DNA of 64,000 nt from Rhodococcus jostii RHA1 (lineage in GTDB: Bacteria; Actinomycetota; Actinomycetes; Mycobacteriales; Mycobacteriaceae): contig NC_008268.1 of NCBI RefSeq assembly GCF_000014565.1, positions 2,294,001 to 2,358,000 on the forward strand, read 5' to 3'. A program made the translations under genes and the position numbers. Positions 19,545 through 48,954 of this stretch are shown piece by piece; the stretch's first letter is position 1, and every line of letters starts with the position of its first letter. The notes under the pieces were generated by a model, which did not search any database, had not been told where the DNA came from, and saw only the letters and a list, made by a program, of their open reading frames with translations.

Positions 19545-19582
19545 TAGGTGTAACTGCTAGACACACTGACATGGAGGATTTC

Positions 19583-22063: not shown

Positions 22064-23023
22064 ATGCGACCGTTCGAAGCTCTGCGATCCGCGTTCTCTC
22101 TGCGTGTACTGGCGGTGATGCTGCTGGTCGTTTCCGGGTGGGCGGCGCTCGGCCCGCCGTCGGTTTCGGCGGAGCCCCGCATCACCAGGGTGGACGTGTA
22201 TTCGGAGTCGATGGGCCGGTGGGTGGCCAACGACGTCATCTCTCCCGCATCTGACGGTCCGGCGCCGACCTTCTACCTACTCACCGGCATCGGCGGCGGG
22301 TCGGACGGGATCTCCTGGTTCAACAACACCGGTGTGCGGGACTTCTTCGCCGACAAGCATGTCACCGTGGTAATGCCGATCGGCGGCCAGTACAGCATGT
22401 ACACCGATTGGGATGCCGACGATCCGGTCCTCGGCCGGAACAAGTGGCAGACGTACCTGACGAGCGAACTCCCCGCGGCCGTCGACAGCCGGTTCGCGAC
22501 CACCGGGTCGAACGCCATCGGCGGGGTGTCGATGGCGGGCGGCGCGGTACTCGACCTCGCCGTGCAGGTTCCGGGGTTCTACCGGGCCGTCGGCTCGTAC
22601 AGCGGGTGTGCCGCGACGAGCGGACTGCTGGGCCAGGCGATGGTGCGGTCGATGGTGGAATTGCGGGGCGGCGGCAATGCGGCCAACATGTGGGGCTCCG
22701 TCGTGGACCCGCGGTGGCGGGTGCACGACCCGATGCTGAACGCCGAACGTCTGCGGGGCACAGAGTTGTTCGTCTCGAGCGGCAACGGACTTCCCGGCAG
22801 CATCGACAACCACGACCCGGTGCTGGTGGTGCCTCAGACGATCGGCGGCAGCGTCGTCGAGATGGTGACCAACGTGTGTGCGGCCGCGTTCCAGTCGCGG
22901 CTGAATTCGCTGGGGATTCCCGCCACGTTCGCCTACGTCTCGCAGGGCACGCATTCGTGGGGGCTGTTCGAGACCGAGTTACGGGAGTCCTGGCCCGTCA
23001 TCGGCGGTGCGATCGGGGCGTGA
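22064..23023 (+). CDS. Antigen 85-family mycolyltransferase/esterase
   Basis: A 319-residue exported alpha/beta-hydrolase. A signal peptide ends near residue 36 (PPSVSA followed by EPRIT). The nucleophile is Ser156 in GGVSMAGG and the catalytic histidine is His297 in GTHSWGLFE, both as in antigen 85 enzymes that move mycolates between trehalose esters and arabinogalactan. [18 protein letters not shown] and DWDADDP are typical. GGGGGCG lies upstream of the ATG as ribosome-binding site. The last 45 bp overlap the 3' end of the NRPS gene on the opposite strand. It indicates a mycolic-acid envelope; involvement in the neighbouring cluster is not implied. Confidence 0.87.
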
Positions 23024-26000
23024 CCCCAGGGAGCGCTCCAGGATCGGCCCGATGACCGCGAGCGCTTCCGGCGTGGTCATCCGCAGGTGGTCGCATTCCA
23101 CCTTGTGCTCGACGATCACGCCGGTGATCGCGGGCTGCCACACGCTCGGCGACGGCCGTTCGCCTTCTTCCCCGTCGGCGGAATGCGCGGCGCTGAAGAA
23201 CACCAGGTCGCCGTCGAACACCCGCGGCCGGTATCCGGTGGAGATCTCCTTCGAGTTCTCCAGGCCGGTGCTGATGCGACCGAGGAGGGTCGACGCGAAC
23301 GCGGGGTCGCGGCCGAAGGATCGTCCGAGCATCTCGACCAACTGCTCGCGGTACGACGTGCCGGTGTCGCCGCCCTCGCCCTCGAACTCGACACCCAGCC
23401 CGTGCAGCCACTCCTCGGCGTTCACCTCGAGGTCACCGAAGTTGTCGCCCTCCGCGACGTAGCTGTCCATCATCGCGAGTGTGCCGACCTCGGCGCCGGA
23501 CTCACGGAGTTCGACGGCGACGGCCTGGGCGATGACGCCGCCGAGGGACCAGCCCAGTAGGTGGTAGGGGCCGTGGGGCTGCACCGCGCGCATCTCGACG
23601 ACGTACCGGTGGGCGAGCTGCGCCATCGACTCGAACGTCGTTCCGCCGCTGAGGATCGGCAGCTGCAGCCCGTACACCGGACGGTCGGGCGAGACGTACT
23701 TCATCAGTCCGGCGTATCCCAGCGCAAGCCCGCCTGCCGGGTGCACGCAGAACAGCGCGGGTTGCGCACCGGACGCCCGGAACGGAACGACGACGTTCAG
23801 CACGTCGTCCGCGGGCACGCTTCCGAGGGCTGACGGGTCGACGATGCGGCGAGCCAGGCCCTCCGGGCTGGGGTTGCGGAAGATCCACTGCAGGACGACG
23901 TCGGTGCCGAGCCGGTCGCGGAGCGCGGACGCCACCCGGGTCGCGACGAGCGAGTTCCCGCCCAATTCGAAGAAGTCGTCGTCGGCCCCGACGCGGTCGA
24001 TGCCGAGGACGTCGGCGAAGACCTCCGCCACCGCCTCCTCGACCGGGGTGGCGGGTGCCCGGAACTCTCGGGGCGCGAGCACCGGTGCGGGTAGCGCTCG
24101 CCGGTCGAGCTTGCCGGTGCGGCCGACGGGCAGCCGGTCGAGCACCACCAGCTGGGCCGGCACCATGTACGGCGCGAGGTGGGATCCGGCGTACCGGAGT
24201 ACCTCGGCGGTGTCGATACTTGCACCGGCTTCGGCCGTCACGTATCCCACCAGCCGGTCGCCGGTGCCGCTGTGCACGGTGACCGCCGCGCGGCCGACAC
24301 CGTCGCAGCGGGCCAGCACCGATTCGATCTCGCCGAGTTCCACCCGCTGGCCACGGATCTTCACCTGGAAGTCGTTGCGTCCCACATACTCCAGCCTGCC
24401 GATCTCGCTCCACCGCACGAGGTCGCCGGTCCGGTACATGCGGGAGCCGGGTTCGCCGAACGGGTTCGCCACGAAGGATCCGGCCGTCAGCGCCGACCGC
24501 CGGTGGTAGCCGCGCGCGAGCCCCGGCCCCGCGACGTACAGTTCCCCGATCACGCCCACCGGAACGGGCTGCAACCAGGTGTTCACCACGATCACCTCGA
24601 CGCCCCGCCCGGGACCTCCGACGTTCACCGGTTCGTCGGGGGACAGCACCTCGCTGACCGTGGTCTGCACTGTCGCCTCGGTGGGTCCGTATCCGTTGAA
24701 GACGAATCGTCCCAGGGTCCAGCGGTCGGCCAGTTCGGGTGGGAACCGCTCGCCCGCGACGGCGAGAATCCGCAGGGACGGGAGGTCCTCGGGACGGAGG
24801 GTGTCCAGGATCGTGGGGGTGAAGAACGCGTGCGAGACGTGTTCGCTCGCGAGGAGTTCGGCCAGTTCCCGTCCCCCGAGGACGGTCGGTGGCACGACGA
24901 CCAGTGTCGCGCCGACGGCGAACGCCATCAGCAGTTCGAACAATGACGCGTCGAAGCTCGGCGACGCGAGATGCGACACCCGCGCACCGTGCATGGACGC
25001 GAACCGTTCCCGTTCCTCGACTGCGAGATTCGCGAGTCCGCCGTGCGTGAGCACGACCCCCTTCGGTGTTCCCGTCGACCCCGACGTGTAGAGCAGGAAA
25101 GCCGCGTGTTCGACCCTCAGCGGGCGGAGACGATCGGCGTCGATCACCGGGTCGCCGGAGTATCCGTTCGCCACCTCGGGATCGTCGAGCAGCAGCCACG
25201 GCACCACCCCGGGCAACCGGTCACGGTACGCCGTCACCGTCAGCCCGAGCACCGCACCCGAATCCTCGAGCATGCCGCCGGTGCGCGCGGGCGGCAGGGT
25301 GGGATCGACCGGCACGTACGCCGCCCCCGATTTCGCGACCGCCCACACCGACAGCACCCATTCGATCGATCGCGGCACGCCGATCGCGACGAACGCGTCC
25401 GGACCGGCACCTCGGCGGATCAGGGCCCTGGCCAGCCGGTTCGACCGCTCGTCGAGTTCCCGGTACGTCACGATGACGCCGTCGCACGACACTGCGGTGG
25501 CCCCCGGGGCGGGCGCGGCGCCGGCGGTGAGGACGTCCGGGAGGGTGCGTTCCGCGACCGCGGGGAAGCCGCGCACGGGCACGAGTTCGTCCCGTTCGAG
25601 GGCATCGAGGATCTCGAGGTCGCCGACCCGGATCGACGGGTCGGTGACGGCCGCATCGAGCATTCGGACGAACCGGTCGGCCAGGCCGGCGACGGTTTCG
25701 GCGTCGAAAAGGTCGGTGGCGTAGGTGAAACCGGCGGTGATGCCTGCCGGCGTTCCGTCGTCCGTGTACTCCTCGGACAACGTCAGTTGCAGGTCGAACC
25801 TGGCGATCGTGGCACCGAGGTCGATGCCCTCGACCTCGACGCCGGGCAGCGAAAGGTCGGGGCGTTCGACGTTCTGGAACTCGAGCAGCACCTGGAACAG
25901 CGGTGAATGTGCCGTCGAGCGGGGCGGATCGAGCGCTTCGACGACCTTCTCGAACGGCACCTCGGCGTGGGCGTACGCACCGAGATCGACGTCACGCACC

Positions 26001-29000
26001 TGCTCGAGCAGTTCGGAGAACCGGCTCGCGTCGGAGACGAGGGTCCGCAGCACCACGGTGTTGACGAACATTCCGACGACGTCGTCGAGTGCGGCCTCGC
26101 CGCGCCCGGCCACCGGGGTGCCGACGGCGATGTCCTCGGTGCCGGACATCCTCGCGAGGAAGGCGGCCAGCGCGGCGTGCGCGACCATGAACACGGTCGA
26201 CTGGTGCGTGGACGCCGTCGCCAGCAGCCGGCGGTGCAGACCGGCGTCGATCTCGAATCCGACCCTGCTCCCGTCGGGCGTGCGTTGCATCGACCGCGGG
26301 CGGTCGGAGGGCAGGTCGAGGGCGGCGGGGAGACCGGCCAGCGTGGTGCGCCAGTAGTCCAGTTGCTGCGACACCATCGACTGCGGATCGTCTTCCGCCC
26401 CGAGGAGTTGGCGCTGCCAGAGCGTGAAGTCGGCGTACTGGACCGTCGGCGGATGCCACTCCGGGGCGTGCCCGGCCGCCCGCGCGGTGTACGCCACCAT
26501 CATGTCGCGTGCGAGCGGGACCATCGACACGCCGTCCGCGACGATGTGGTGGACCACGACCAGCAGCACCCTGTCGGTGTCGGAGGTCTCGAACACGGCG
26601 GCCCGCAAGGGGATCTGCCCGGTGACGTCGAACCCTTCCGAGACGGCCGCCGACAGCCGTTCCTGCAACTCCGCGTCACTCGACACGGTCGCGACGGGCA
26701 GGTCCGGCACCGAATCCGCAGCCGCGAGGATCACCTGCACCGGTTCGTCGCCGGCCATCGGAAACCGGGTGCGGAGCGATTCGTGACGCTCCACCACATC
26801 GGTCATCGCGGACCGCAGTGCGTCGAGGTCGAGTGCGCCGGTGAGCCGGAACGCCATGGCGATGTTGTAGGCGGGCGAAGAGGTGTCGAACTGGTTGAGG
26901 AACCACATGCGGGTCTGGGCCAGGGACAGGGGAATACGCTCGGGGCGCGGCGCCGCCCGCAACTCCGGCCGGTGCGTCAGCACTCCTGCTTTCGCCGCGC
27001 GCTCCGCGAACCCTGTCACGGTGGGCGCCTCGAACAGAGCGTGCACGCCGACGTCGACGCCGAGAGCGGCATCGACCCGTGCAACGACCCGGGTGGCCGA
27101 CAGCGAATCTCCGCCCAACCGGAAGAAGTTGTCGTCGGCACCGACGCGGTCGACACCGAGGACGTCGCCGTACACCTCGGCGATGACGGCCTCGAACGGG
27201 GTTGCCGGAGCCCGGAATCGACGCACCGGAGCGTCCGGTGCGGGGAGTGCGGCACGATCCAACTTCCCACTCGCCGTCACCGGCAACTCCCCCAACACCA
27301 CCACCACCGACGGCACCACACCCCCCGGCAACACCGACCCCGCAAACTCCACCACCACACCCGGATCCACCCGCACCCCCACCTCCGGCACCACATACCC
27401 CACCAACCGACCACCCTCACCCACCACCACCACCACCGCAGCCGCCACCCCCGGACACCGCCCCAACACCGACTCCACCTCCCCCAACTCCACCCGCTGC
27501 CCCCGCACCTTCACCTGAAAATCAGCCCGCCCCACAAACACCAACGACCCCAACCCATCCCACCGCACCAAATCCCCCGTCCGATACAACCGCGAACCCA
27601 CACCCCCGAACGGATCCGCCACAAACGACGCCGCCGTCAACCCCGCCCGCCCCAAATACCCCCGCGCCAACCCCGCACCCCCCACATACAACTCCCCCAC
27701 CACACCCACCGGCACCGGCCGCAACCACCCATCCAGCACCACCACCTCCACCCCCACCGCCGGACCACCCACCGTCACCACACCCCCCGCCACCAACGCA
27801 TCACTCACCGTCGCCTGCACCGTCACCTCAGTCGGCCCATACGCATCGAACAACTCCCGCCCCGGCGCCCACCGCGCCACCAACTCCGACCCCAACACCT
27901 CCCCCGCCACCACCAACACCCGCACCGACCCCAACGCCCCCTCCTCCACCGTCGCCAACACCGACGGCGTCACAAAACAATGCGTCACCCCATTGACCCC
28001 CAACCACTCCCCCAACGCCGCACCCCCGAACACCCCCGGCGGCGCCACCACCAACCGCGCCCCCACCGAAAACGCCATCAACCACTCGTACACCGACGCA
28101 TCAAAACTCGGCGACGCCACATGCGACACCCGACACCCCGACCACAAACCAAACCGAACCCGCACCTCCTCAACCAAATTCGCCAACCCCCCATGCGTCA
28201 CCACCACCCCCTTCGGACGCCCCGTCGACCCCGACGTATACATCACATACGCCGCACACCCACCCACCAACCGCCTCGTCCGCTCCCCATCCGACACCAC
28301 ACCCCCCGACACCCCCTCCACCACCGACACATCATCAACCCGCAACCACTCCACCACCGACGGCAACACCACCCCCGACACCGACAACCCCACCACCGCA
28401 CCCGAATCCACCAACAACTCCCGCACCCGCACCTCCGGCAACACCGGATCCACCGGCACGAACGCCGCCCCCGACTTCACCACCGCCCACACCGCCACCA
28501 CCAACTCCACCGACCGCGGCACCGCCACCCCCACCACCAACTCCGGACCCACACCCCGCCCGATCAACACCCGCGCCCACCGATTCGACCACTCATCCAA
28601 CTCCCCATACGACAACTCCACACCCCCACACGACACCGCCACCCCACCCCCACCCAACCCCACACCCCCCGCCAAAATCTCCGGCAACAACCGCACCCCC
28701 ACACCCACCCCACCCCGCACCGGCACCAACACCCCCCGCTCACCCGAACCCAACACATCCACACGAGCCACCGTGACATCCGGATCGGAGGCCATCGCCT
28801 CGAGCACCCGGGTGACCCGGCCTGCCATCGCGTCGACGGTGGCCCTGTCGACCAGGTCGGGTCGGTAGTGAAACGTCATGCGCAGCTGCGTGTCCACCGA
28901 GAAGGCGACGCTCAGCGGATAATGTGTGGCGTCGACGCCGCGCACGTCGACCACCCGGATGCCGGCGAGGTCGGTGTTCTCGGTCAGGCCTCCCCGGTCG

Positions 29001-32000
29001 ATCGGGTACGACTCGAAGACGGTTGCCGTGTCGAACCCGATGTCGGGGCCGGCTGCTCGCTGGATGTCGGCGAGACCGAGGTGGTGGTGGTCGAGGAGGG
29101 CTGCCTGTTCCGCTTGTGTCCGGTCGAGCAGTCGGCCCAGCGTTTCCCGGGGGTTCAGCGTGATGCGTGTGGGCACGGTGTTGACGAACAATCCGATCAT
29201 CGATTCGACGCCGGTCAGGTGCGGCGACCGCCCGGACACGGTGCTTCCGAACGTCACGTCGTGGCGGGACGTCGCAGCGCCGAGCACGATGCCCCACGCC
29301 ACCTGTGTCACCGTGTTCAGTGTCGTGTTGCGGGTACGCGCCAGGGTGGTGAGGTCGGCGGTCAGATCCTCGGGCAGGGTGAACAGGGCGCTCTCGGGAG
29401 GGGCCGACAGCGGCCGTCCCCGTGCGTCCGCCAGCAGCAGTGTCGGACCGTCGACGCCGGCGAGCGCGGTCGCCCACGCCGCTCGTGCTTCCGCGGGGTC
29501 CCGGCGATGCAGCCACGACAGGAAGTCTCGGTAGGGCCGGGGTCGCGGCAACGCCGACCCATCGTCTCCGGCCATGTAGAGCGCGAGCAGTTCGCGGATC
29601 GCCAACGGCATCGACCATCCGTCGAGGAGGGTGTGGTGATTGGTCCACACGAGCCGCGATTCGTGGCTGCCGGTCGTCACGAGCAGGAACCGCACCAGTG
29701 GGGCCCGGGTGGTGTCGAACGGCGCGGCCCGGTCGGCGGTGAGGGCCCGGTCCAGTTCGGCGGTGCGCGCGGCCTCGGGCAGGTCCGTGAGGTCGATCTC
29801 GCGGAACGGCAGGTCGACGGCAGCGGGAACCACCTGGACGAAGGTTCCGTCTCGGGCGGGGACGAACGCCACCCGCAGATTCGCGTGCCGATCCAGCAAT
29901 GCCTGTGCGGCGCGGCGCATCCGGTCCGGGTCGACGTCCCCCTTCAGGTGCAGTTCCACCTGCACCGTGTACGCGTCGATCGACGGTTTCGCGAGCAGGG
30001 CGTGGAACAGCAACCCGGCCTGCAGGGGTGCGGGCGGCCACACGTCGGTGAGCGCGCCGAAGCGCTCCTCCCAGGTGTCGAGGTCGCTCTGGGTCACGTC
30101 GACGAGGGGAACGTCCGACGGTGTGAGTCCGCCTGCGTCCCCGCCGCGAGCGTGGGACACCAATGCGGACAACGCTTCCCGCCACCGTTCTGCCAGCGTG
30201 TCCACCTCGGCATGTGCGAGCAGGGTGTCCGGGAAACCGAACCCGACCCGGAGTCGTCCGCCGATCACGATCGCGTTGACCTCGATGGCGGCAGACGCCG
30301 GCATGTCGGGGTCCGGGACGTACCGCAGGTCGCCGAACCCGTCGGCGGGGCTCCAGCCGACCGCGGTGTCGTGATCCGCCGAATCCGGAACCTGTCCGAG
30401 GTAGTTGAAGCTGATCTGCCCGGGTTCGGTTCTCGGCAGGCTGCCGGCCGTGTCCGGATTCAGGTAGCGGAGCAGTCCGTAGCCGATCCCCATGTCGGGC
30501 ACTGCCCGGAGGTGTTCCTTCACGCGTTTCACGGCGCTGCCCATGTCGTGGCCGCCGGTCAGCGCGTCGTCGAGGTCGATACCCTGGAGATCGACGCGGA
30601 CCGGAAAGACCGTGGTGAACCAGCCGACGGTGCGGGACAGGTCGGCGCCCGGCACCACCTGCTGCTCCCGGCCGTGCCCTTCCAGCCGGATCAGCATCGA
30701 CGTTCCCGGGATCCCCCGCTCGGCTCGCCACCTCGACGACGCCACCACCAGCGCCGTCAGCAGGACGTCGAGGACACCCCCGTGATACAGCCCCGGCAGG
30801 CGTGTGAGCAGAACAGACGTATCGTCGGGGGCGGTCTCGACACTCACGTCCCGCAGCGCAGTCGCGAGGTCCCGGCCCGGGTCGAGGGGGCGTTCGGTGA
30901 TCGGCGGGTCGGGGCCGTCGACGACGTTCTGCCACCACACCAGTTCGGCGGCTCTCTCGCTTCGGATAGCTTCGTCGGCCAGCGCGTGCGCCCATCGGCG
31001 CATCGACGTCGCCGGTTCCGGGAGGGACGGCACGCTCCCTGTGCTGACCTGGTACCAGGCGGCGGCGAAGTCGGGCAGCAGAATCCGCCACGACACCCCG
31101 TCGACCGCGAGGTGGTGCGCGACCACGATCACTCGTCCCGTCCGGGCCGGGGGCGCGGCGGAGGGCTCCGGGTCGAGCCACACGAACTGGACGACCACCC
31201 CGTCGGACGGGCGCAATCTCTCCACGGCCGCCTGGTGTTCGGTCGCGAGCAGGTCTGCCAGCGTGCCGGGATCGGTCGCCGGGTCGAAGGCGATGCGTCG
31301 GACCAGTGTGTCGGCGTCGATCTCGGTTGCGGCACGAGTCTCCATCTGCCACTGCCCGTTCGCGTCCTGGTAGAGCCGCGACCGCAGCATGTCGTGTCGT
31401 GCGAGCACCGCCGTGATCGTCGCGAGGAGCCGGTCGGGGTCGATGCCGTCCGGGAGGTCGAGCAGCACGCTCTGGCTGAACCGCTCGAAGTGCCCGCCGC
31501 GCTCGATCAGGTACCGGACCACCGGCGTCGGCGGGAACGTGCCGATTCCGCCGCCCGCGAGTTCGGCGAGGGCGATTGTGGTCTCACCGTCCGCGATCTC
31601 CGATTCCGCCGCGAGCGCGGCCACGGTCCGGTGCTCGAACACCTGCTGCGGCGTGAACACCAATCCTCGTGCCTTGGCACGGGATACGAGCCGGATCGAC
31701 AGGATGCTGTCGCCGCCCAGCGCGAAGAACGACTCGTCCAACCCGACGTGGTCGAGCCCGAGTACCTCGGCGAACACCGACGCCAGCGTGTGCTCCGCCG
31801 CTGTCCGTGGCGCGCGGTGTGGTCCGCGGGCAACGACGGGTGCGGGGAGTGCGGCACGATCCAACTTCCCACTCGCCGTCACCGGCAACTCCCCCAACAC
31901 CACCACCACCGACGGCACCACACCCCCCGGCAACACCGACCCCGCAAACTCCACCACCACACCCGGATCCACCCGCACCCCCACCTCCGGCACCACATAC

Positions 32001-34519
32001 CCCACCAACCGACCACCCTCACCCACCACCACCACCGCAGCCGCCACCCCCGGACACCGCCCCAACACCGACTCCACCTCCCCCAACTCCACCCGCTGCC
32101 CCCGCACCTTCACCTGAAAATCAGCCCGCCCCACAAACACCAACGACCCCAACCCATCCCACCGCACCAAATCCCCCGTCCGATACAACCGCGAACCCAC
32201 ACCCCCGAACGGATCCGCCACAAACGACGCCGCCGTCAACCCCGCCCGCCCCAAATACCCCCGCGCCAACCCCGCACCCCCCACATACAACTCCCCCACC
32301 ACACCCACCGGCACCGGCCGCAACCACCCATCCAGCACCACCACCTCCACCCCCACCGCCGGACCACCCACCGTCACCACACCCCCCGCCACCAACGCAT
32401 CACTCACCGTCGCCTGCACCGTCACCTCAGTCGGCCCATACGCATCGAACAACTCCCGCCCCGGCGCCCACCGCGCCACCAACTCCGACCCCAACACCTC
32501 CCCCGCCACCACCAACACCCGCACCGACCCCAACGCCCCCTCCTCCACCGTCGCCAACACCGACGGCGTCACAAAACAATGCGTCACCCCATTGACCCCC
32601 AACCACTCCCCCAACGCCGCACCCCCGAACACCCCCGGCGGCGCCACCACCAACCGCGCCCCCACCGAAAACGCCATCAACCACTCGTACACCGACGCAT
32701 CAAAACTCGGCGACGCCACATGCGACACCCGACACCCCGACCACAAACCAAACCGAACCCGCACCTCCTCAACCAAATTCGCCAACCCCCCATGCGTCAC
32801 CACCACCCCCTTCGGACGCCCCGTCGACCCCGACGTATACATCACATACGCCGCACACCCACCCACCAACCGCCTCGTCCGCTCCCCATCCGACACCACA
32901 CCCCCCGACACCCCCTCCACCACCGACACATCATCAACCCGCAACCACTCCACCACCGACGGCAACACCACCCCCGACACCGACAACCCCACCACCGCAC
33001 CCGAATCCACCAACAACTCCCGCACCCGCACCTCCGGCAACACCGGATCCACCGGCACGAACGCCGCCCCCGACTTCACCACCGCCCACACCGCCACCAC
33101 CAACTCCACCGACCGCGGCACCGCCACCCCCACCACCAACTCCGGACCCACACCCCGCCCGATCAACACCCGCGCCCACCGATTCGACCACTCATCCAAC
33201 TCCCCATACGACAACTCCACACCCCCACACGACACCGCCACCCCACCCCCACCCAACCCCACACCCCCCGCCAAAATCTCCGGCAACAACCGCACCCCCA
33301 CACCCACCCCACCCCGCACCGGCACCAACACCCCCCGCTCACCCGAACCCAACACATCCAGCCCGGCGAGCGGTGTATCCGGTGCCCCGACCGCGGCGGC
33401 GAGGATGTGGGAGAGGCGCTGCGCGTCGCCGGGTCCGTGCACGTCGACGGTCCAGGACCCGTCGCGGTCGTCGACGTCCACGACCATCCCGTCGCCGCCG
33501 GAGTCCCATCGCTTCACGACGGCGACGGCACCCTCGCCGATGCGCTCGACGCCGAGCGGTTCCCGCATGCCGCCCGCCACCGGGCAGGAGTCCGCCGCGC
33601 CATCTTCGGAAGCGAGGTACCGGTGTCGTCGGGATCGCCGGAGCTGCAGACCCACGTGCCGTGTCAGCGTGTCGAATGTGAGTTGCGGTGCGAGGGAAAG
33701 TCTCACGGGTGTGGTGGATCCGCGCGACCGGTGCCCGACCAGAACGTCGTCGACGGCGGTGCGGCTGTGCAAGTACACCGCCAGCGCGGCGAGCAGGACA
33801 GCGTCGGGACCACCGCCGCTGCGGCGTGCGAGCCGCACGAGCGCGCCGTCGGCGGGAACGGTGAACGGGCCGAGGTTCTCCCCTCCGGCGATCGGTTCGG
33901 GCGGGGTCTCGTGTCGCGACGCTCCGGCGAGCAGGTGCTCCCAGTAGCGGCGGTCGTCCGCCCACGCGGCGCTCTCGCGGTATCGCGCATCGGCGGTCAG
34001 CGGAACGGAGGGCGACACGAACGGCCGGGACTCGGGCGGCGAGGTGGGAGCGGCGGCCCCCGTCTCGTAGGCCTCGGCGGTGCGGCGGACGATCACCGTC
34101 ATGCCCGGTTGGTCGTTCACCAGCCGGTGGTAGCGCTGGAACCACCCGTATCTGCCGTGGGGCAGCCGGAACAGGACGTGCACGTACAGCGGTCCGGTGC
34201 CGGGTTCCATGGGGCGGTTCAGCTCGTGGTCGATCCACGTCGTCACGAGTCGGCCGGGATCGTCGGACGCGGCGGCGTCGAGGACGTCCGCGCCGGTCAC
34301 CGCGGCGCCGGTGACCTGGCCGGGTTCCGGGCCGTCGAGCACGAAAGTACTGTGCAGGCCGGTGCATTCGGCCAACGTCTTCTGCAGTGCCCGGCAGAAT
34401 CGGTCTTCGTCGAGCGGCCCGTCGAGTTCGAGATACTGACCGAAGGAGGCGTCGCGCGCCCCGGCACGGAGCACCGCGAGCTGGTCGTAGGTGAGGGGCA
34501 GCACCTCACCGGTACTCAT
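22979..34519 (-). CDS. Terminal nonribosomal peptide synthetase, C*-A-PCP-E-C-A-PCP-C-A-PCP-TE
   Basis: A 3846-residue NRPS that ends the assembly line. Domains by approximate residue: C* 1-385, A1 387-893, PCP1 (Ser about 937), epimerase 985-1440 ([11 protein letters not shown]), C2 1455-1900 (HHTLLDGWS), A2 1919-2427, PCP2 (Ser about 2471), C3 2520-2960 (HHIVADGVS), A3 2975-3470, PCP3 (Ser about 3523), thioesterase 3575-3830 (GWSLGG near 3656). C* has HRLVNDQ at 131-137 instead of HHxxxDG, so it should not condense. A1 and A2 are essentially identical. Specificity codes read by eye against GrsA are DAYFVAAVQK (A1, A2) and DAFFAAGVQK (A3); neither matches a substrate I can name, though the pockets look hydrophobic. 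ATG 34519 has AGGA upstream and overlaps the dehydrogenase gene by 14 nt; upstream in-frame codons exist. Confidence 0.95.
27237..28761 (-). repeat. Adenylation-domain direct repeat, copy 1 (domain A2)
   Basis: This 1525-bp segment encodes A2 of the terminal NRPS and is repeated at 31839-33360. The copies match throughout except for one CAC unit near 27421-27437 (five units here, four in the other copy), giving one extra valine. Boundaries fall at the start of the A domain (VLGSGERG) and just after LPAP at its end. Coding-strand third positions are almost all G or T. In the 60 plus-strand bases 27301-27360 I count 35 C, 17 A, 7 G and 1 T. Confidence 0.95.
31839..33360 (-). repeat. Adenylation-domain direct repeat, copy 2 (domain A1)
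   Basis: This 1522-bp segment encodes A1 of the terminal NRPS. It is the partner of 27237-28761, offset by 4602 bp before and 4599 bp after the triplet indel. The flanking C, PCP and epimerase sequences of the two modules are not alike, so only the adenylation domain is shared. Confidence 0.95.
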
Positions 34520-35366
34520 GGAATCCTCGCCCGGTCTTACGCCCGAGATGACCGGCCTCGACCAGGGCGACGAGCGACTCGGGCGGGCGGTAGTGGTCGT
34601 CACCGGTCAATTCGCGCAGCGCGGTCATCGTGTCGTGGACGTTGTCCAGGCCGATCAGGTCCGCGGTCCGCAGTGGTCCCATCGGGTGGCCGAGGCAGCC
34701 TTCGAACAACGCATCGGTGGTCTCCGCGTCGGCGATTCCGTCGCCGAGCGCGGCTGCCGCCTCGGCGATGCACAGCATGAGGACACGGTTGAGCAGGAAT
34801 CCGGGTCCGTCGCCGACGACGATGCCGGTCTTGTTCAAGGAGGCGAGGAGCGCCAGCGCACGGTCCAGCGACTGCGGCGACGTCCGCGGTCCCCGCACCA
34901 CCTCGACGGTGTCCTTGAGCGGGGCGGGGTTCATGAAGTGCAGTCCGACAACCCGTTCCGGCCTCGTGGTGGTGTCCGCGAGACGGTCGACGGGGATGCC
35001 GGAGGTGCACGACGCGAGTAGCGCGTCGGGTGCGCACACACGGTCCAGTTCGGCGAAGACCTTCTCCTTGAGGTCGATTCGCTCGGGGACGCATTCGATG
35101 ACGACGGCGGCGTCTCGCAGATCGGTCATCTCCCCGGTCCAGTGCACCCGCGCGGTGACCTCGGCGGGTTTCGGGCCACCGGCCCTGCCGAGCAGTATCG
35201 CCAGCCGCAGCGAGTCGCGCATCCGCGACCGGGCCTGGTCGACAGCCTGCGGGTCGGGGTCGACGACGATCACGTCGTGGCCGGCCTGCGCGAGACATTC
35301 GGCCACCCCGGCGCCCATGGTTCCCGCCCCGACCACACCGACGCTCATCACGCTGCCACTCGTCAT
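34506..35366 (-). CDS. 3-hydroxyacyl-CoA dehydrogenase-like protein (FkbK type)
   Basis: A 286-residue NAD-dependent dehydrogenase. The Rossmann motif [13 protein letters not shown] opens it, the catalytic histidine lies in GLHFMNPAP, and the C-terminal domain carries [16 protein letters not shown]. Homologues are 3-hydroxybutyryl-CoA dehydrogenases, and the FkbK/ZmaG enzymes that oxidise glyceryl-ACP during methoxy-, hydroxy- or aminomalonyl-ACP formation. The FkbH, FkbI and FkbJ-like genes in the same operon favour the second role: glyceryl-ACP to the tartronate semialdehyde stage. The ATG overlaps the PKS stop as ATGA, with GGAGG upstream; the 3' end overlaps the next NRPS gene. Confidence 0.87.
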
Positions 35367-38300
35367 CGCACTGCCTCCGTGGTGAAGCCGGTGTCGTCCT
35401 GGTGCACGTACTCCATTGCCACCTCCTGGGTGGGCAGGTCGGGGTGAGCCTCGAGTCCGGGCAGCAGCCGCTGGAGGTCGGTGAGCATCGCGGTGGCCGT
35501 GCTCCGGTCGAAGAGGTCGGTGGCGTAGTCGAGTTCGAGGGTGAGCGCCGTGGTGCCGCGGGTCCACGACAGCCCGAGTTCGACGGGTGACAGGTCGGCC
35601 GGCTCGGCATTGTCGTCGCGCTCTCCGTCGTAGCGCACCGGGAAGTGCTGCGTCGCCGTGCCGGCCGCGCGATTCTCCGAGGACAGCTCCCGGCGTACGG
35701 TCTCCACCAGTTCCGGGTAGGTGGGGTCGCCGGACAGGTCCACGGCCACGAGCCGCGGCGGGGCTTCCGGCCCTGTGGCCGTGCCCACCGCCACCTCGTC
35801 CTGCGCCGTGTACCAGGCGAGGAGGGTGAGCCAGGCGGCGAGCAGTTCCGGATGCCCCGGCTCTCCGTCGAGCGCCGCAGTCACCCGTGCGGTCGAATAG
35901 CGCGGCGGTTCCGCACCGGTCGAGGGCTGCCGCGGCCGATCCGCCGGGACCAGGGGCGGCGACACCAGTCGCGACGCCGGCGCCGGAGCCGCGCCGGTCA
36001 GGAACACGGAAATGGGGTGTGTACGCGGAGAATCCGCGACACCGTCGAGGATGCGAACGTACTCGGCGCACAACGCGGCGGCAGTTTGCTCGGTGAACAG
36101 TTCCGTGCTGAACTCGAGCCCGGCCGCCATGCCGTCCTCGCCGGCCCGCTCCGTGGTGACGAGGGTGAGATCGAACTTGGCCGTGCCGGATGGCACCCCG
36201 CCGAACGCGATGGCCGCGGGATCCTCCTGGTCGAACAGCGTCTCGGTGAGTCCTTGCTGCGACTGCAGCGCCGGCAGTTCCTGGTGGACGTGGCAGACGT
36301 CGAACAGGGGTGTCCGGCTCAGGTCCCGGTCGCCGGTGAGTGCGGTGACGACGCGGTCGAACGGGATCTCCTGGTGTTCGAGGGCGCCGAGCACCACATC
36401 ACGCACGCGTGCGCACAATTCCGCGACGGTCGGGTCCCCGGACAGGTCGGCGCGCAGCGCCACCGTGCTGTTGAAGTACCCGATCATGCCGGACAGTTCC
36501 GGTCGGTTACGTCCGGTCGTCGGTGTGCCGACCACGAGGTCGCGCTGGCGGCTGCGGCTCGCCATGAGGAGGTAGAACGCGGAGAGCAGCACCACGAACA
36601 GCGAGACGGACTCCCTGCGTGCCACGGCCCGCAGGCTCCGTGTCAGGTCCTCGGAGACGGTGAACGTGTGGAACGCGCCGGTGAAGTTCTTTCGCTCCGG
36701 GCGTGGGAAGTCGGTGGGCAGCCGGAGCAGCGGAACGTCCTCCAGGACGGTTCTCCAGTATTCGAGTTCGGGGTCGAGCGCGGCGCTCGCGATCAGTTCC
36801 CGCTGCCACAGGGCGTAGTCCCAGTACTCGATGGGGAGCGGGGCGAGGTCGGCGCGGCGACCGGCGCGGCGTGCCGCGTACAGGGCGGGCAGTTCCTGCT
36901 CGAAGATCCTCGGCGAACCCCCGTCGTTGACGGAATGGTGGGTGGTGACCTGCAGGACGTGCTCGTCGGGGCCGATCCTGATGAGCAGTGCCCGCACGAG
37001 CGGGTCGGTGGCGAGGTCGAACGGTGCCACCGCGGCCTCGTGTACGAGTGCCCGGGCCGCGGCCACCGGATCCGGTTCGCCCGACACGTCGGCGGTGCGG
37101 AAGAAGTCGCCGAGGGATTCGCGGATCCGCAGTTCCGGCTCCCCGTCCACCTCGACGTAGTTGGACAGCAGCACCCGATGCCGTGCGGCGAGATCGTCCC
37201 ACATACCCCGGACGGCGGATTCATCAATCGGCCCGTGCAATTCGCTGACCATCGGCAGGTTGTAGATGGTCGTGACGGCGTCGAGTTGGTGATGGAACCA
37301 CATGCGTACCTGACCGAAAGACATCACGTGCCGCCCCCGCGGCATGATCGGGGGCAGCCCACCGGACGCGGACGTGCCGTCCGCGAGGAGTGCGGCGAAG
37401 TCTGCGACCTTCGGCCGCTCGTACAGGTCGATGAGTTTGGGCCGGACCCCGTATCGGTCCGACACCCGGTCGACGAGTTGCATGCCGATGAGCGAGTTTC
37501 CACCGAGGTCGAAATAGTCGTCGTCGGCGCCGACGTCCCTTTCGCTGTGAAGCAGCTCGCGCAGTGTCGTCTGCAACCAGTCGAGGCTGTCTTCCGGCGC
37601 GGCCGTCGCCGATTGCGGGCTCGGTTCCGCCGACGGATTGTCCGGGGCGTCGGCCCAGTCGGGTTGGCCCGGGAGGTCGAACCAGCACCGCGAACCGCGC
37701 AGCGGGTGTCCGGGTAGGCGCACTCGCCAGGCAGAGTCGTCACCGCGGTCGACGGCTGCCCAGTCGAGGTCGATTCCGCGCTCGTACAGCCCGGCGAGGA
37801 GGTGTGTGACCGCGTCGGATGTGTCCGTCGCGCGAAGTATTTCGGCATCTGGCGTGTCGCGGAGGGCATCGGCGAGCAGTGCCCCGAGGCGTCCCTCCGG
37901 GCTCGGCTCCACGAAGACGACGGGTCCGTCCGCGAGCATGCCCTTCGCGACGGCGACGAGCCGGTCCGTGTCGATCGAGGGATCCGCGGCCGCGGCGGTG
38001 ATGTCGGCGGCCTCCACCGCCGACAGTGCGTCCCGCACATACCGGGCCGCGTACCGGGACACGCCACCGCTGAGGACGGCGTCGACGGTGACGCCGGCGG
38101 CGCGGAGGTCCCGGTGGACGGCGATCTGGCCTGCGAGGAGGTCCGCCTCGTCGCCGGTGGCGGGAAGCTCCGACGGCAGGCTGCGGCCACGCAATGCGGG
38201 CGGCATCCGGTCGGGTGACAGCAGCAACGCCACGGCGGGGCGTTGCCGGGTGGGCGGTGCGGAGTCCTCGCCGCGGGCGACGAGTTCGGCGGCGCGCGCA

Positions 38301-39793
38301 GCGAGCGACTGCGAGAGTTCGGCAATGCTGCGTGCGTGCACCGCCACCCGGTGGTCGTGGTGCGGGCGGCCGCGGTTGAGGGTGAACGCCACATCGTCGA
38401 GGTCGTGCCCGCGCACGGCCGTCGCCAGTTCGGCACACAGCGTCGCCAGGGCGCCCACGCTCTTCGCCGACACCCCGACCAGCCGAGTCGTCGTGCCGGC
38501 GCGGGATCCGGCGGCACGCTCCGGCGGCTGTTCCACCACGCAGTGTGCGTTGATGCCGCCGAGGCTGAACGAACTCACCCCGGCCCGCCGGGGTCCGGTC
38601 TCGTCGCTCCACATCCGGGCCTCGGTGACCACCTCGATTCCGTTGCCCGCGAGGTCGACTCCGCCGGTGGGTCGTTCGAAGTGCAGCGACGGGTACAACT
38701 CGCCGTGCTCGACACTCAGGATCGCCTTCACGAGACCGGACACCCCGGCGGCGTGGTCGAGGTGACCGATGTTGGTCTTCACCGAACCGATCGGCAGGAC
38801 GCCGGGACGGTCCCGGAACGCGGACGTGATCCCTTCGAGTTCGACCGCGTCGCCCAGTGGAGTTCCCGATCCGTGGGCCTCGAGGTACCCGGCATCGTCC
38901 GGGGTGAGACCCGCCTTCTGCCAGGCCCGGGAGATGACGGCCACCTGCGCCCGCGCGCTCGGGGAGCTGATGGTTGCGGACGAATGCCCGCTGGATACCG
39001 TTGCGGTGCCGCGGATCACGGCGTGGACCGGGACGCGATCCGCGCGGGCGCGGGCCATGGTGGTGAGGAGAAGAGCCGCCCCACCCTCCCCGACCGCGGT
39101 GCCGTCCGCGTTCGCGTCGAACGCGCGGCAGCGCCCGCCGGGAGACATCAGTTCCGCGGATCCCTCCGCCATGTCCGCGCGGAGGCCGTTCACCCGCAGA
39201 CTGACTCCGCCCGCGAGGGCGAAATCGGCGTCACCCGACCGCAGCTCCCGGCAGGCGTGCTGCACCGCGATGAGCGACCCGTTGCACCCCGAATCGACGG
39301 CGTAGCAAGGTCCGGTGAGGCCGAGCTGGTACGCGATCCGGGCCGGCACCGCGAACGGAACGTTGCCCAGGGTGCTCAGCACACCCGGTTCCGCCCACAT
39401 CGCCGGATACGTCGAGGTGGCGGCGCTGAACACCACCGCCGTCGCGCTGTCGCGGAACTCGGCCACCGAATAACCGGCGTCCTCGACCGCCTGATACGCG
39501 AGGACCAGTGCGAGACGCTGCTGCGGGTCGATCAGCGACGCTTCCCGTTTCGACAGGGTGAAGAACGCGTAGTCGAACGTGGAGATGTCCTCGACGAAAC
39601 CCATCGCGTGGTAGTGGGAGGGAGGCCCCAGCCCGGTCGCCTTCGCCCGTGACCGGGACAGCGGACGCACCGAGTCCCGGCCCGCCGCGAGGTTGGCGCG
39701 GAACTCCGCCAGGTTCGCTGCCTCGGGGTAGCGCGCGGCGATGCCGACCACGGCGATGTCGTCGTCACCCGGTGTGGGATGTCGCACGCTCAC
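35363..39793 (-). CDS. Hybrid PKS-NRPS, KS-(degenerate AT)-PCP-C-(half C)
   Basis: A 1476-residue protein. The ketosynthase (about 10-430) has Cys170 in DSGCNGSL, His307 in EAHGSGTPLGD and His344 in KTNIGHLDHAAG, so the catalytic triad is present although the usual CSSS is CNGS. The expected acyltransferase region (about 519-705) is shortened; SGGVSR at 575-580 replaces GHSxGE, so the nucleophile is missing. A PCP-type carrier follows (GGNSL, Ser767), then a complete condensation domain (about 825-1250, HHSVNDG at 952-958). A further stretch of about 190 residues matches only the C-terminal half of a condensation domain. There is no ketoreductase. GTG 39793 has GGGAGGAG upstream and lies 20 nt after the preceding NRPS stop. 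Confidence 0.92.
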   Translation of the reverse strand: MSVRHPTPGDDDIAVVGIAARYPEAANLAEFRANLAAGRDSVRPLSRSRAKATGLGPPSHYHAMGFVEDISTFDYAFFTLSKREASLIDPQQRLALVLAYQAVEDAGYSVAEFRDSATAVVFSAATSTYPAMWAEPGVLSTLGNVPFAVPARIAYQLGLTGPCYAVDSGCNGSLIAVQHACRELRSGDADFALAGGVSLRVNGLRADMAEGSAELMSPGGRCRAFDANADGTAVGEGGAALLLTTMARARADRVPVHAVIRGTATVSSGHSSATISSPSARAQVAVISRAWQKAGLTPDDAGYLEAHGSGTPLGDAVELEGITSAFRDRPGVLPIGSVKTNIGHLDHAAGVSGLVKAILSVEHGELYPSLHFERPTGGVDLAGNGIEVVTEARMWSDETGPRRAGVSSFSLGGINAHCVVEQPPERAAGSRAGTTTRLVGVSAKSVGALATLCAELATAVRGHDLDDVAFTLNRGRPHHDHRVAVHARSIAELSQSLAARAAELVARGEDSAPPTRQRPAVALLLSPDRMPPALRGRSLPSELPATGDEADLLAGQIAVHRDLRAAGVTVDAVLSGGVSRYAARYVRDALSAVEAADITAAAADPSIDTDRLVAVAKGMLADGPVVFVEPSPEGRLGALLADALRDTPDAEILRATDTSDAVTHLLAGLYERGIDLDWAAVDRGDDSAWRVRLPGHPLRGSRCWFDLPGQPDWADAPDNPSAEPSPQSATAAPEDSLDWLQTTLRELLHSERDVGADDDYFDLGGNSLIGMQLVDRVSDRYGVRPKLIDLYERPKVADFAALLADGTSASGGLPPIMPRGRHVMSFGQVRMWFHHQLDAVTTIYNLPMVSELHGPIDESAVRGMWDDLAARHRVLLSNYVEVDGEPELRIRESLGDFFRTADVSGEPDPVAAARALVHEAAVAPFDLATDPLVRALLIRIGPDEHVLQVTTHHSVNDGGSPRIFEQELPALYAARRAGRRADLAPLPIEYWDYALWQRELIASAALDPELEYWRTVLEDVPLLRLPTDFPRPERKNFTGAFHTFTVSEDLTRSLRAVARRESVSLFVVLLSAFYLLMASRSRQRDLVVGTPTTGRNRPELSGMIGYFNSTVALRADLSGDPTVAELCARVRDVVLGALEHQEIPFDRVVTALTGDRDLSRTPLFDVCHVHQELPALQSQQGLTETLFDQEDPAAIAFGGVPSGTAKFDLTLVTTERAGEDGMAAGLEFSTELFTEQTAAALCAEYVRILDGVADSPRTHPISVFLTGAAPAPASRLVSPPLVPADRPRQPSTGAEPPRYSTARVTAALDGEPGHPELLAAWLTLLAWYTAQDEVAVGTATGPEAPPRLVAVDLSGDPTYPELVETVRRELSSENRAAGTATQHFPVRYDGERDDNAEPADLSPVELGLSWTRGTTALTLELDYATDLFDRSTATAMLTDLQRLLPGLEAHPDLPTQEVAMEYVHQDDTGFTTEAVR

Positions 39794-39813
39794 GGTTGTC
39801 TCCTCCCGGCTCG

Positions 39814-42800
39814 TCAGAACTCGTAGGTGGCGGGCGCGGGCGCCTCGCTCGTGTCGGTGGACTGCGCAATCGCTTCGGCCTGCGCCGCCACGGTGACGAG
39901 GTCGAACAGCTGGCCCACGCGCAGAGCCCCGGGCCACTGTTCGTCGAGACGACGCTGCAGTTCCACGACGCGATGCGAGTTGCCGCCGACGTCGAAGAAC
40001 CCGTCTTCGGAACCGAAGTCGTCGTGCCCCAGCACCGCCGCCCAGTGCTCGGCGACCGACCGTTGCAGCGCGCTCCAGCGTTGCCGCGACTCGCCGCGCG
40101 CAGGCTCCGTGTCGGAGACGAGTGCGCGCAGCGCGTTCTCGTCCACCTCGCCGTCCGGCGTTCGCGGGACCGCGCCGAGTGCGACGAACCGCGTGGGGAC
40201 CGATCGGGCGTCGAGCCGTCCGGCGCTGAACTCCCGCAGGTCTTCTGCCATCGGGAGCACGGCCGCCGCGGCCGCCGGGACCCAGAAGGCGGTGACACCG
40301 GTGGCGGTTGTGAGGACCACCGCTTCGCGGACCGCCGGGTGACTCTCCACGACGTCGGTGACCGACCGTGCCGGGGATCCGGTGGCGCCGACGCTCAGCA
40401 GTCGTCCGGACCGATGCCATCGCGCGAGTGCGCCCGTCCGGACCATCCGGGTGCCCGGGGCGCCGAACGGATTTGCCACGAACGTCGTGGCCGCCGCCCG
40501 CGCCGAGGTGTGGTGCTCCCGCGTGTCGGCCAGGTACACCGCACCGGTCACGCCTTCGGGGGTGAGCTGCAACCGGGGATCGAGCACCACGGTCTCGGCC
40601 GCCGCACTCCATTCGCGAATCCGGGTGAGCTCGTCCGGGGCCAGCACGTCGACGTCTCCGACGGCGACACTCGGATCTGCAACGACTGCGGCGAGAATCC
40701 TGGTGAACCGGTCGGCCAGGGCCTGCACGGTCGCCGCATCGAAGAGGTCGGTGGCGTAGGTGAATCCCGCGGTCATCCCTTCCGGTGTTCCGCACTCGTC
40801 GTACTTCTCCCGCACCGTCAGTTGCAGGTCGAAGAGCGACACCTCGACGTCGGGTTCGAGGACTTCGGCCTCCAGGTGCGGGAGGGCGAGATCGGGGTGT
40901 TCGGTGTTCCGGAACTCGAGCAACACCTGGAACAGGGGTGAATGCGACTGGGACCGAGGCGGGTTCAGCGCTTCCACCACCCTCTCGAACGGCACGTCCG
41001 CGTGGGCGTAGGCCGCGAGGTCGGTCTCACGGACCCGGGTGAGCAGTTCGTCGAAGGTCCCCGACACGTCGGTCCGCAGCACGAGGGTGTTGACGAACAT
41101 TCCCACCACGTCGTCGAGGACGGCCTCGCCGCGGCCGGCGACCGGCGACCCGATCACCACGTCGCCGGTACCGCCCGAGCGGGCCAGCAACACGGCGAGC
41201 GCCGCGTGCACGACCATGAACACGGTGCACCGCCGGGTCCGCGCCAACGCCACCGTGTCCCGGTGCAGGTCGGCGCCGATCCCGAACGTCACCCGGTCGC
41301 CGGAGGCAGAGCGCCGCGGCGGGCGGTCACGGTCCGTGGGCAGATCGGTGACGGCCGGCGCGTCGGCGAGGTCGGATCGCCAGTAGTCCAGTTGCCGCGA
41401 AAGCAGGGAGTCCGCGTCGTCCTCCGAGCCGAGGAGTTCCCGCTGCCACACGGCGTAGTCGGGGTACTGCACCGGCAGCGGCTCCCATCCCGGCGTGCAG
41501 CCCTCGGACCGTGCGGTGTAGGCCGTCATCACGTCGCGGGCGAGCGGAGCCATCGAGAACCCGTCGGCCGCGATGTGATGCACCACGACGACGAGAACGT
41601 GCTCGCGGTCGCCGAGTTCGAACAGCCTGGCCCGCATCGGGACTTCGGTGGCGACGTCGAAACCCGCGGACACGAGTTCCGAGATCTGTTCGCGTACCGG
41701 ATCGTCGGACGCCGACGAGGTGAGTTGCGCGACGTGGCCGGCACCGACGATCACCTGGGTGGGTCCCGAATCGCCGTACGGGTACCGGGTGCGCAAAGAT
41801 TCGTGCCTGTCCACCACGTCGGCGAGGGCGGCGGTCAGTGCGTCGACGTCGAGGTCACCCGACAGCCGGACGATCATTGCGACGTTGTACGCGGGTGAGG
41901 ACGGGTCGAACTGATTGAGGAGCCACATCCGGTGCTGCGCCCACGAGAGCGGCACCGGGTCGGGGCGCCGGGGCACCGTCACCGCGGGCCGGGCTTCGCC
42001 GCCCGCGCTCTCGCGCGCGATCCGTGCCGCGAGCGCCCGTACGGTCGGGGTCTCGAACACGTCCCGCACACCGACGTCGGTGCCGAGCGCGGAGTTGATC
42101 CGAGCGACCACCTGCGTCGCGGTCAGGGAGTTGCCACCGGACGCGAAGAAGTCGTCGTCTGCTCCGACGACGCCGGTCCCGAGAACCTCGGCGAACACGT
42201 CGGCCACCGCGGACTCGAACGGTGTGCCGGGTGCGCGGAAGATGCGGGGCGCGAATTCGGGGTCCGGCAGCGCGTGCCGGTCGACCTTGCCGTTGGCCCC
42301 GAGCGGCAGCCGGTCGAGGACCGTCACCGAGGCCGGCACCATGAAGGGTGCGAGCACGGATCCGGCGAACTGCAGCACCTCGGTCGTGTCGAGGTCCGCG
42401 CCGTCCTCGGCCGTGACGTATCCGGCGAGGACCGCCTCGGCCGCGGGCGTGCGGCGCACCACGACCACCGCCTGCGCGACACCGGGGCAGCGGGTGAGCG
42501 CCGCCTCCACCTCCCCCGGTTCGACCCGCTGTCCGCGCAACTTGACCTGAAAATCGTTGCGGCCCAAATATTCCAGCCTGCCTTCCTTCGTCCACCGCAT
42601 CAGATCGCCGGTGCGATACATGCGTGAGCCCGGGCGGTCGAACGGGTTCGCCACGAACGAGGCCGCGGTGGTTCCTGCCCGCCGGTGGTAGCCGCGCGCC
42701 AGACCCTCCCCCAGCACGTACAGCTCACCCACCACACCGACCGGCACCGGACGCAGCCACTCGTCGAGGACGAGTTCGCGGACACCGCGCATCGGGTGAC

Positions 42801-48800: not shown

Positions 48801-48954
48801 CGACGTCCAGGTCGCCGTGCACCTCGACGTACTGGGCGATGCACAGCGGCACGCCGGGGGCCAGTTGCTGGGCCAGCCACGCCTCGTATTGGGCCGACGA
48901 CAGCGGGAACGGTACTTCGGCGCTGCCGGCGGCCTCGGTATGGTGCTCACGCAA
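39814..48954 (-). CDS. Nonribosomal peptide synthetase, C-A-PCP-C-A-PCP-C-(A remnant)-PCP
   Basis: A 3046-residue NRPS that likely starts the chain. Approximate residues: C1 20-450 (IHHVALDG near 145), A1 676-1175, PCP1 (Ser about 1224), C2 1265-1690 (HHIAADA near 1410, with Ala for Gly), A2 1735-2228, PCP2 (Ser about 2274), C3 2331-2755 (HHIAADG), adenylation remnant 2771-2925, PCP3 (Ser about 2990). The A1 code read by eye, DFWSVGMVHK, is close to the known threonine code DFWNIGMVHK. The A2 code DALFVGGVMK is unassigned. The leading C domain could acylate the first residue. Starts at GTG 48963/48960 are possible; TTG 48954 is used because GGAGG lies 8 nt before it. It overlaps the preceding adenylation gene by 8 nt. 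Confidence 0.94.

What the first reader, a model, noticed from the sequence alone, without database searches (positions are those of the whole stretch)
27237..33360. Two near-identical adenylation domains in one NRPS gene, differing by one CAC triplet
Segments 27237-28761 and 31839-33360 (about 1.52 kb) match base for base as far as I can compare, apart from a slipped CAC unit that adds one valine. The flanking C, PCP and E domains are not duplicated. The boundaries coincide with the adenylation-domain edges. This is what recent A-domain replacement or gene conversion inside a synthetase would leave, a natural unit-exchange event, and it implies the same amino acid in two adjacent positions (first one epimerised).
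Basis: seen in the sequence. Interest (0 to 1): 0.85.

Follow-up and report, generated by a model that had tools for sequence, protein, structure and literature searches.

The report
Strand-skewed twin domains kept identical
A peptide-making enzyme gene carries two copies of one domain written in an extremely lopsided G-and-T-rich DNA style, and comparison with related bacteria indicates that the copies are kept matching over long times rather than having been pasted in recently.

Summary
The repeat is real: 27237-28761 and 31839-33360 match with no mismatch over 1,522 bases and one 3-base gap, in modules 1 and 2 of a three-module NRPS gene. [quoted passage not shown] They are no recent insertion. 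In 9 of 9 related genomes with both copies on one contig they sit at the same places, 98.4-99.9% identical within and 79.6-97.9% between genomes, and pair by genome in a tree: concerted evolution by gene conversion. Four-fold sites change about four times less than in the third A domain, mostly G<->T. A lead beyond the finding: the G+T-rich strand has leading-strand sequence at 32 of 33 scored NRPS loci, including 6 of 7 in lagging-strand genes. Those six come from only two gene groups, and there are counter-examples, so a fork rule and a RecA role stay hypotheses. Known kind of element; informative new case.

The parts
22979..34603 (-). three-module NRPS gene (3,874 aa), read as C-A1-T-E-C-A2-T-C-A3-T-TE
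   Evidence: Pfam: 4 condensation-family, 3 AMP-binding, 3 carrier, 1 thioesterase stretches; order inferred from motifs
31839..33360 (-). skewed repeat copy in module 1 (A1 domain, aa about 416-922)
27237..28761 (-). skewed repeat copy in module 2 (A2 domain, aa about 1949-2456)
27435..27437 (-). extra GTG unit (one valine) in the module-2 copy; exact place within the (GTG)n run is arbitrary
28784..31816 (-). unique T-E-C2 stretch between the copies, skew about 0; orthologue marker and divergence control
   Evidence: (28801-31800 used there)
24110..25519 (-). third A domain (A3), ordinary composition, not duplicated; in-gene control

Best explanation
The two A domains are a pair of GRINS-type elements. 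An ancestral pair of homologous A-domain segments came to be written almost without C and A at silent sites of one strand (how is not shown). The two copies, 4.6 kb apart in one gene, are repeatedly homogenised by RecA-type gene conversion (gene conversion is inferred from comparison, RecA is assumed), with tract ends that vary by lineage. Homogenisation keeps both modules on the same substrate and spreads new changes to both copies. The skew is itself maintained: silent changes in the repeat are almost only G<->T. The likely reason, inferred and not shown, is that the skewed strand is a good recombination substrate: it is very rich in TGG/GTG triplets and in G runs.
For: Identity, and skew that ends close to the repeat edges. 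Third-position GC skew 0.95 and TA skew 0.95-0.98; Leu 48 of 50 TTG and Val 114 of 118 GTG in copy 1; A3 and the other segments ordinary. 9 of 9 genomes: copies 98.4-99.9% alike within, 79.6-97.9% between, pairing by genome, 8 of 9 pairs starred or identical and one (G005) at 89/91. Four-fold divergence G000-G005 is 0.058 in A1, 0.235 in A3 and 0.23-0.37 in the other unrepeated segments, although amino-acid identity is lower in A1 than in A3 (86 vs 93%); G<->T makes up 15 of 17, 21 of 22, 17 of 17, 29 of 33 and 27 of 28 changes in A1 against G005, G008, G010, G014 and G024. TGG 82 per kb and CCA 0 per kb on the coding strand of the repeat vs 17.5 and 12.4 in the rest of the window; E. coli RecA filaments are most stable on TGG repeats, and at low RecA least stable on CCA (PMC3763553, abstract and passages).
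Against: No conversion event was watched; shared constraint could in principle hold the copies alike, though it would not explain sharing of genome-specific silent changes. The slow silent divergence could come from mutation bias or selection instead of recombination. RecA data are from E. coli. The E. coli Chi octamer does not occur in either copy; the Chi of this genus was not looked for. The origin of the skew is not explained: GC content is almost unchanged, so deamination alone does not fit.
Confidence: 0.88

Rival explanations
1. Recent replacement: one A domain was recently pasted over the other, or a foreign A domain was inserted twice in this lineage.
For: Identity is near total and composition differs sharply from the flanks.
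Against: The same pair with the same skew sits at both places in 9 of 9 genomes with both copies on one contig; between-genome identity of the repeat rises and falls with that of the flanks.
Confidence: 0.04
2. Assembly artefact: one A domain sequence used twice.
For: Repeats of 1.5 kb are hard for short reads; in G004, G006, G007 and G016 the spacer is a lone contig.
Against: The two copies differ by 3 bases and each has its own flanks; nine assemblies agree, seven of them with the locus on a contig of 4.4 Mb or more.
Confidence: 0.02
3. The skew is set by transcription (for example RNA-DNA hybrids on a G-rich coding strand), and gene conversion follows from it.
For: In this gene, and in 26 of 26 scored loci in leading-strand genes, the coding strand is the G+T-rich one; one patch in a lagging-strand gene (G001 6.306 Mb) is so too. 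Borrelia vls cassettes also have a G-rich coding strand (PMC11499132, passages).
Against: At 6 of 7 scored loci in lagging-strand NRPS genes the coding strand is C+A-rich, though from only two gene groups.
Confidence: 0.15
4. Selection on codon choice or RNA (translation speed, folding) in these domains gives both the skew and the slow silent change, without recombination.
For: Skew is strongest at third positions.
Against: Amino-acid make-up is pulled as well (23% Val, 17% Gly vs 12% and 11% in A3); does not explain pairing of copies by genome or the opposite coding-strand skew in lagging-strand genes.
Confidence: 0.07

Closest known systems
GRINS (Nivina, Herrera Paredes, Fraser and Khosla, PNAS 2021; paper itself not held; definition seen in passages of PMC10394414, and PMC9899208)
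   Same: Repeated segment of about 1 kb or more inside one assembly-line gene, high identity, intense GC and TA skew, signs of gene conversion.
   Different: Host gene is an NRPS, the elements are nearly whole A domains, identity is near 100%, skews are about 0.6, and homogenisation is followed here across 9 genomes. The passages read speak of PKS; a wider range of gene families is recalled from the PNAS abstract.
Nucleotide skew in NRPS genes (PMC9205934, wollamide/desotamide, passages; review PMC11915812, passages)
   Same: NRPS genes with shared patterns of nucleotide skew, and skew named beside recombination and gene conversion, are already in print.
   Different: The passages give no skew values, no tie to a repeated A-domain pair and no strand rule.
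Concerted evolution of NRPS and PKS domains (Medema et al. 2014, PMC4256081, abstract and passages)
   Same: Domains cluster by gene cluster rather than by position; reported there for A domains of the daptomycin group.
   Different: No nucleotide skew discussed in the passages read.
Borrelia vls gene-conversion cassettes (PMC11499132, passages)
   Same: Repeated cassettes that undergo gene conversion, average GC skew 0.52 on the coding strand, clustered Gs, skew thought to be maintained for recombination.
   Different: Antigenic variation with silent cassettes; AT skew near 0 in the table rows seen; no homology tested or implied.
Mycolactone mls PKS genes (PMC2569948, passages)
   Same: Near-identical repeated domains ascribed to ongoing gene conversion.
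   Different: PKS genes; GC skew appears in the passages only as a map track.

Membership tests
GRINS | region of at least 500 bp with >80% mean identity (150-nt windows, step 30) to another region of the same cluster | tested here: met
   two regions of 1,530 bp, the only two in 22901-49100 (edit-distance identity used in place of pairwise2)
[quoted passage not shown]
   0.63/0.58 over the repeats; 0.64/0.59 as window means
GRINS | association with gene conversion | tested here: met
   pairing by genome, genome-specific tract edges (inference from comparison)
GRINS | lies in an assembly-line synthase gene (described for PKS in the passages read) | tested here: inconclusive
   assembly-line gene, yes, but this gene is an NRPS and not a PKS; whether the original authors count NRPS could not be read
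GRINS | recoding of a native domain (same protein, new nucleotide make-up) | tested here: inconclusive
   no orthologue with an unskewed A1 or A2 was seen; only 9 of the 13 genus genomes that hold the spacer could be checked
NRPS adenylation domain | AMP-binding family and core motifs | tested here: met
   (PF00501; YTSGSTG, YGPTE, RTGDL and GKLD in each of the three A domains; motif meaning recalled)

The most novel reading that the evidence does not exclude
The polarity of these skewed repeats is set by the replication fork, not by transcription: the strand kept free of C and A is the one with leading-strand sequence (the template of lagging-strand synthesis), which is exposed as single strand at each fork. 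Being made of TGG/GTG triplets that stabilise RecA filaments, it primes conversion between copies, and conversion in turn favours the more skewed copy, a self-reinforcing drive that rewrites synthetase domains. In lagging-strand genes the same drive makes the coding strand C+A-rich and the protein rich in Thr, His and Pro instead of Val and Gly.
Probability: 0.4. Interest if true: 0.85.

Novelty: new member of a known kind. Interest (0 to 1): 0.62.

Why it matters
How such skewed repeats arise and persist was called unknown in the original GRINS abstract (recalled, not read here). This NRPS pair offers two copies, one unskewed control domain in the same gene, and nine genomes. The polarity lead turns 'mechanism unknown' into a yes/no test: replication direction or transcription direction. 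If right, it also tells synthetase engineers where nature recombines domains most easily.

Tried and rejected
Foreign double insertion, recent replacement and assembly error were considered and set aside. Deamination as sole cause was set aside because GC content hardly changes. Transcription polarity as sole cause is disfavoured by the lagging-strand loci. Polarity set by domain type was set aside: patches at G000 7.16 Mb that overlap A domains are C+A-rich on the coding strand, while here the A domains are G+T-rich. A substrate was not assigned: the code residues read DAYFVAAVQ in both copies of G000, G026 and G024 and in one copy each of G009 and G014 (the other G009 copy partly unread, the other G014 copy with V at one place); my motif search failed on 8 of 18 copies, and the code positions are recalled. 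The test in linear Streptomyces-type genomes was not done: the class-level dnaA search was answered only, which used the last genome search. No structure was predicted. Ten papers were seen as passages only (PMC10394414, PMC9899208, PMC9205934, PMC5550956, PMC4256081, PMC11907408, PMC11915812, PMC3763553, PMC11499132, PMC2569948); the GRINS paper was not held. Nine paper searches (the listings cut to 3-30 papers): nothing that I saw in listings or passages describes a fork rule for such repeats, which does not show that none is in print.
Full report
Observation. The two segments are as described: 1,525 aligned columns, no mismatch, one 3-base gap. They are the A domains of modules 1 and 2 of a 3,874-residue NRPS gene on the minus strand. 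The window lies in a genome of 9,702,737 bases in 4 contigs with a 7,804,765-base chromosome, which fits Rhodococcus jostii RHA1 (sizes recalled).

What sets the repeat apart. On the coding strand the repeats have GC skew 0.63 and TA skew 0.58; the neighbouring segments average near zero, and the change falls at the repeat ends, within some tens of bases. Of 2,124 300-nt windows over the whole 64 kb, 103 have both skews above 0.3 with the same sign, and all of these touch the repeats. In five control stretches elsewhere in the chromosome, 1 of 3,099 windows does (15 more control stretches were asked for but not granted). At four-fold sites of copy 1 the third base is G in 89%, T in 10%, C in 1% and A in none; in A3 it is 48% G, 41% C, 4% T and 8% A. 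The amino acids are pulled as well: 23% Val and 17% Gly in the repeat, 12% and 11% in A3. GC content stays much the same, so in effect C gave way to G and A to T. By the rule given in PMC9899208 (150-nt windows, identity above 80%, at least 500 bp, both skews above 0.15) the two copies are the only GRINS in 22901-49100.

Not recent. Of 28 genomes of the genus (G000 included), 13 hold the unique T-E-C2 stretch at 76% identity or more. In 9 of these 13 both repeat copies are on the same contig, at the same places. Within a genome they are 98.4-99.9% identical (the lowest, G009, owes this to 22 single-base gaps beside 3 mismatches); between genomes 79.6-97.9%. A tree of the 18 copies pairs them by genome in 9 of 9 cases, one pair (G005) with lower support, 89/91. 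In the other 4 of 13 genomes the T-E-C2 stretch fills a lone contig of 3.0-3.3 kb, as expected where the copies collapse. The ends of the homogenised tract differ between genomes; in G026 it runs further upstream than in G000.

The skew is maintained. Four-fold divergence between G000 and G005, G008, G010, G014 and G024 is 0.058, 0.074, 0.058, 0.136 and 0.103 in A1, against 0.235, 0.276, 0.232, 0.471 and 0.422 in A3, while amino-acid identity is 86, 87, 86, 73 and 79% against 93, 90, 94, 74 and 81% (the three genomes with frame breaks were left out). Of the silent four-fold changes in A1, 109 of 117 are G<->T (sum of these five comparisons); over all sites of six genome pairs G<->T makes up 47.5% of the differences in the repeat and about 7% in the two flanks.

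Spread. In 301 genomes of the family (28 of the genus among them) strong DNA matches (E <= 1e-150) occur in 46, from 8 of 31 genera (at most two candidates per genome were scored there, and many genomes show two of nearly equal score). The 30 of these places that were fetched as loci are all skewed, GC skew 0.32-0.67 over the match.

Polarity. NRPS stretches, about 2.06 Mb from 18 genomes of one to nine contigs, were scanned for 300-nt windows with both skews above 0.3. They were chosen by condensation-domain matches (listings capped at the best E-values) or by DNA matches to the repeat or to a C+A-type patch; choice by DNA match selects for skew of one sense, but not for replication arm. Fork direction was taken from dnaA, assuming linear chromosomes with arms on either side of dnaA for G000, G005, G008, G010 and G027 and circular ones with ter opposite for the rest; loci within 6% of the antipode were set aside. 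Grouped by hand into 33 loci, 26 of 26 in leading-strand genes are G+T-rich on the coding strand, and 6 of 7 in lagging-strand genes are C+A-rich on it, so that the G+T-rich strand has leading-strand sequence in 32 of 33. The six are G000 0.288-0.301 Mb, G000 7.160-7.175, G027 6.856-6.865, G027 6.934-6.948, G009 4.696-4.709 and G298 1.953-1.968. Each has repeats of 95.9-99.9% identity within the stretch. G009 and G298 were found through the C+A-type query. Fisher's exact test gives 6e-6, but the loci are not independent: seven of the 26 are this very gene; of the six, G000 7.16 and G027 6.93 are orthologous, and the other four all match one query from G000 at 68-100% identity. So the lagging-strand evidence amounts to two gene groups in four genomes.

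Results against the polarity rule. G001 6.306 Mb (480 bp) is G+T-rich on the coding strand of a gene that is lagging by my map, 6.6% from the antipode; it is not repeated within the 20 kb fetched. Of six scanned loci set aside as near ter, four agree (G001 6.158, G009 2.95, G014 1.79, G025 4.56-4.59) and two disagree with the nominal arm (G298 3.724-3.735, G154 2.914). Among loci seen only as matches, G159 and G283 disagree nominally and lie within about 5% of the antipode; G057, G143, G161, G171, G207 and G225 agree. At least seven lagging-strand stretches have no strong patch: near ori in G005, G008 and G010, G001 5.15, G000 2.44 and 2.53, and G298 0.82; the nominally lagging near-ter NRPS genes at G154 2.89, G225 2.78, G182 3.01 and G011 3.18 have none either. 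The C+A query also matched 18 further genomes, mostly drafts, with weak or no skew. Frame breaks made the script call the opposite gene strand at four patches of this gene and another in G009 and G027; there I took the strand from the repeat match.

Mechanism proposed. The G+T-rich strand carries TGG at 82 per kb and no CCA, and the patch at G000 288183-289000 shows TGG at 78 per kb on its G+T-rich, non-coding strand. RecA of E. coli is held best on TGG repeats and, at low concentration, worst on CCA. G-quadruplex-type motifs cover 6% of the repeat and 0.3% or less of the rest of the window. Borrelia vls cassettes, described as a gene-conversion system, share the G-rich, skewed make-up. Shown: identity, skew, pairing by genome, restricted silent change, and the polarity pattern in the genomes scanned. 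Inferred: gene conversion as the cause, RecA, fork exposure, drive.

Verdict.

Noticed in passing
G000:C1:288183-301399 (L084): Another NRPS of this genome has near-identical repeats (818 bp at 99.9%, 464 bp at 99.4%) with the opposite skew: coding strand C+A-rich, protein rich in His, Thr and Pro.
   Followed up: yes
G000:C1:7165366-7174765 (L111): Two adjoining stretches of 4,726 bp at 99.7% identity in an NRPS gene, with skewed patches overlapping the A domains.
   Followed up: partly
L075 (G017:C1:2514000-2530500): Three copies of a skewed A-domain segment, 99.2-99.9% identical in two of the pairings, in one stretch.
   Followed up: no
L067, L068, L072 (G026, G027, G009): The orthologous genes have frame breaks; in G009 the copies differ mostly by single-base gaps at G. 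Likely sequencing errors in low-complexity DNA, not checked.
   Followed up: partly
27237-28761, 31839-33360: The genome search with PF00501 at E <= 1e-30 (129 of 197 candidates scored) did not list these two A domains, although hmmscan of the protein finds three A domains; skewed composition may hide such domains from fast filters.
   Followed up: no
genomes: In the capped listings most NRPS genes lie on the leading strand by my map.
   Followed up: no
34400-33400 (-), first condensation-type domain: The motif scan finds only three HHxxxDG sites in the protein, none in the first condensation-type domain, which may therefore be inactive.
   Followed up: no
35363-40795 (-) and 39814-49032 (-): Neighbouring frames hold a ketosynthase, carrier and condensation domain, and a further NRPS, so the cluster looks like an NRPS-PKS hybrid; an AurF-type oxygenase (19571-20497) and an esterase (22064-23023) lie on the other strand.
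   Followed up: no
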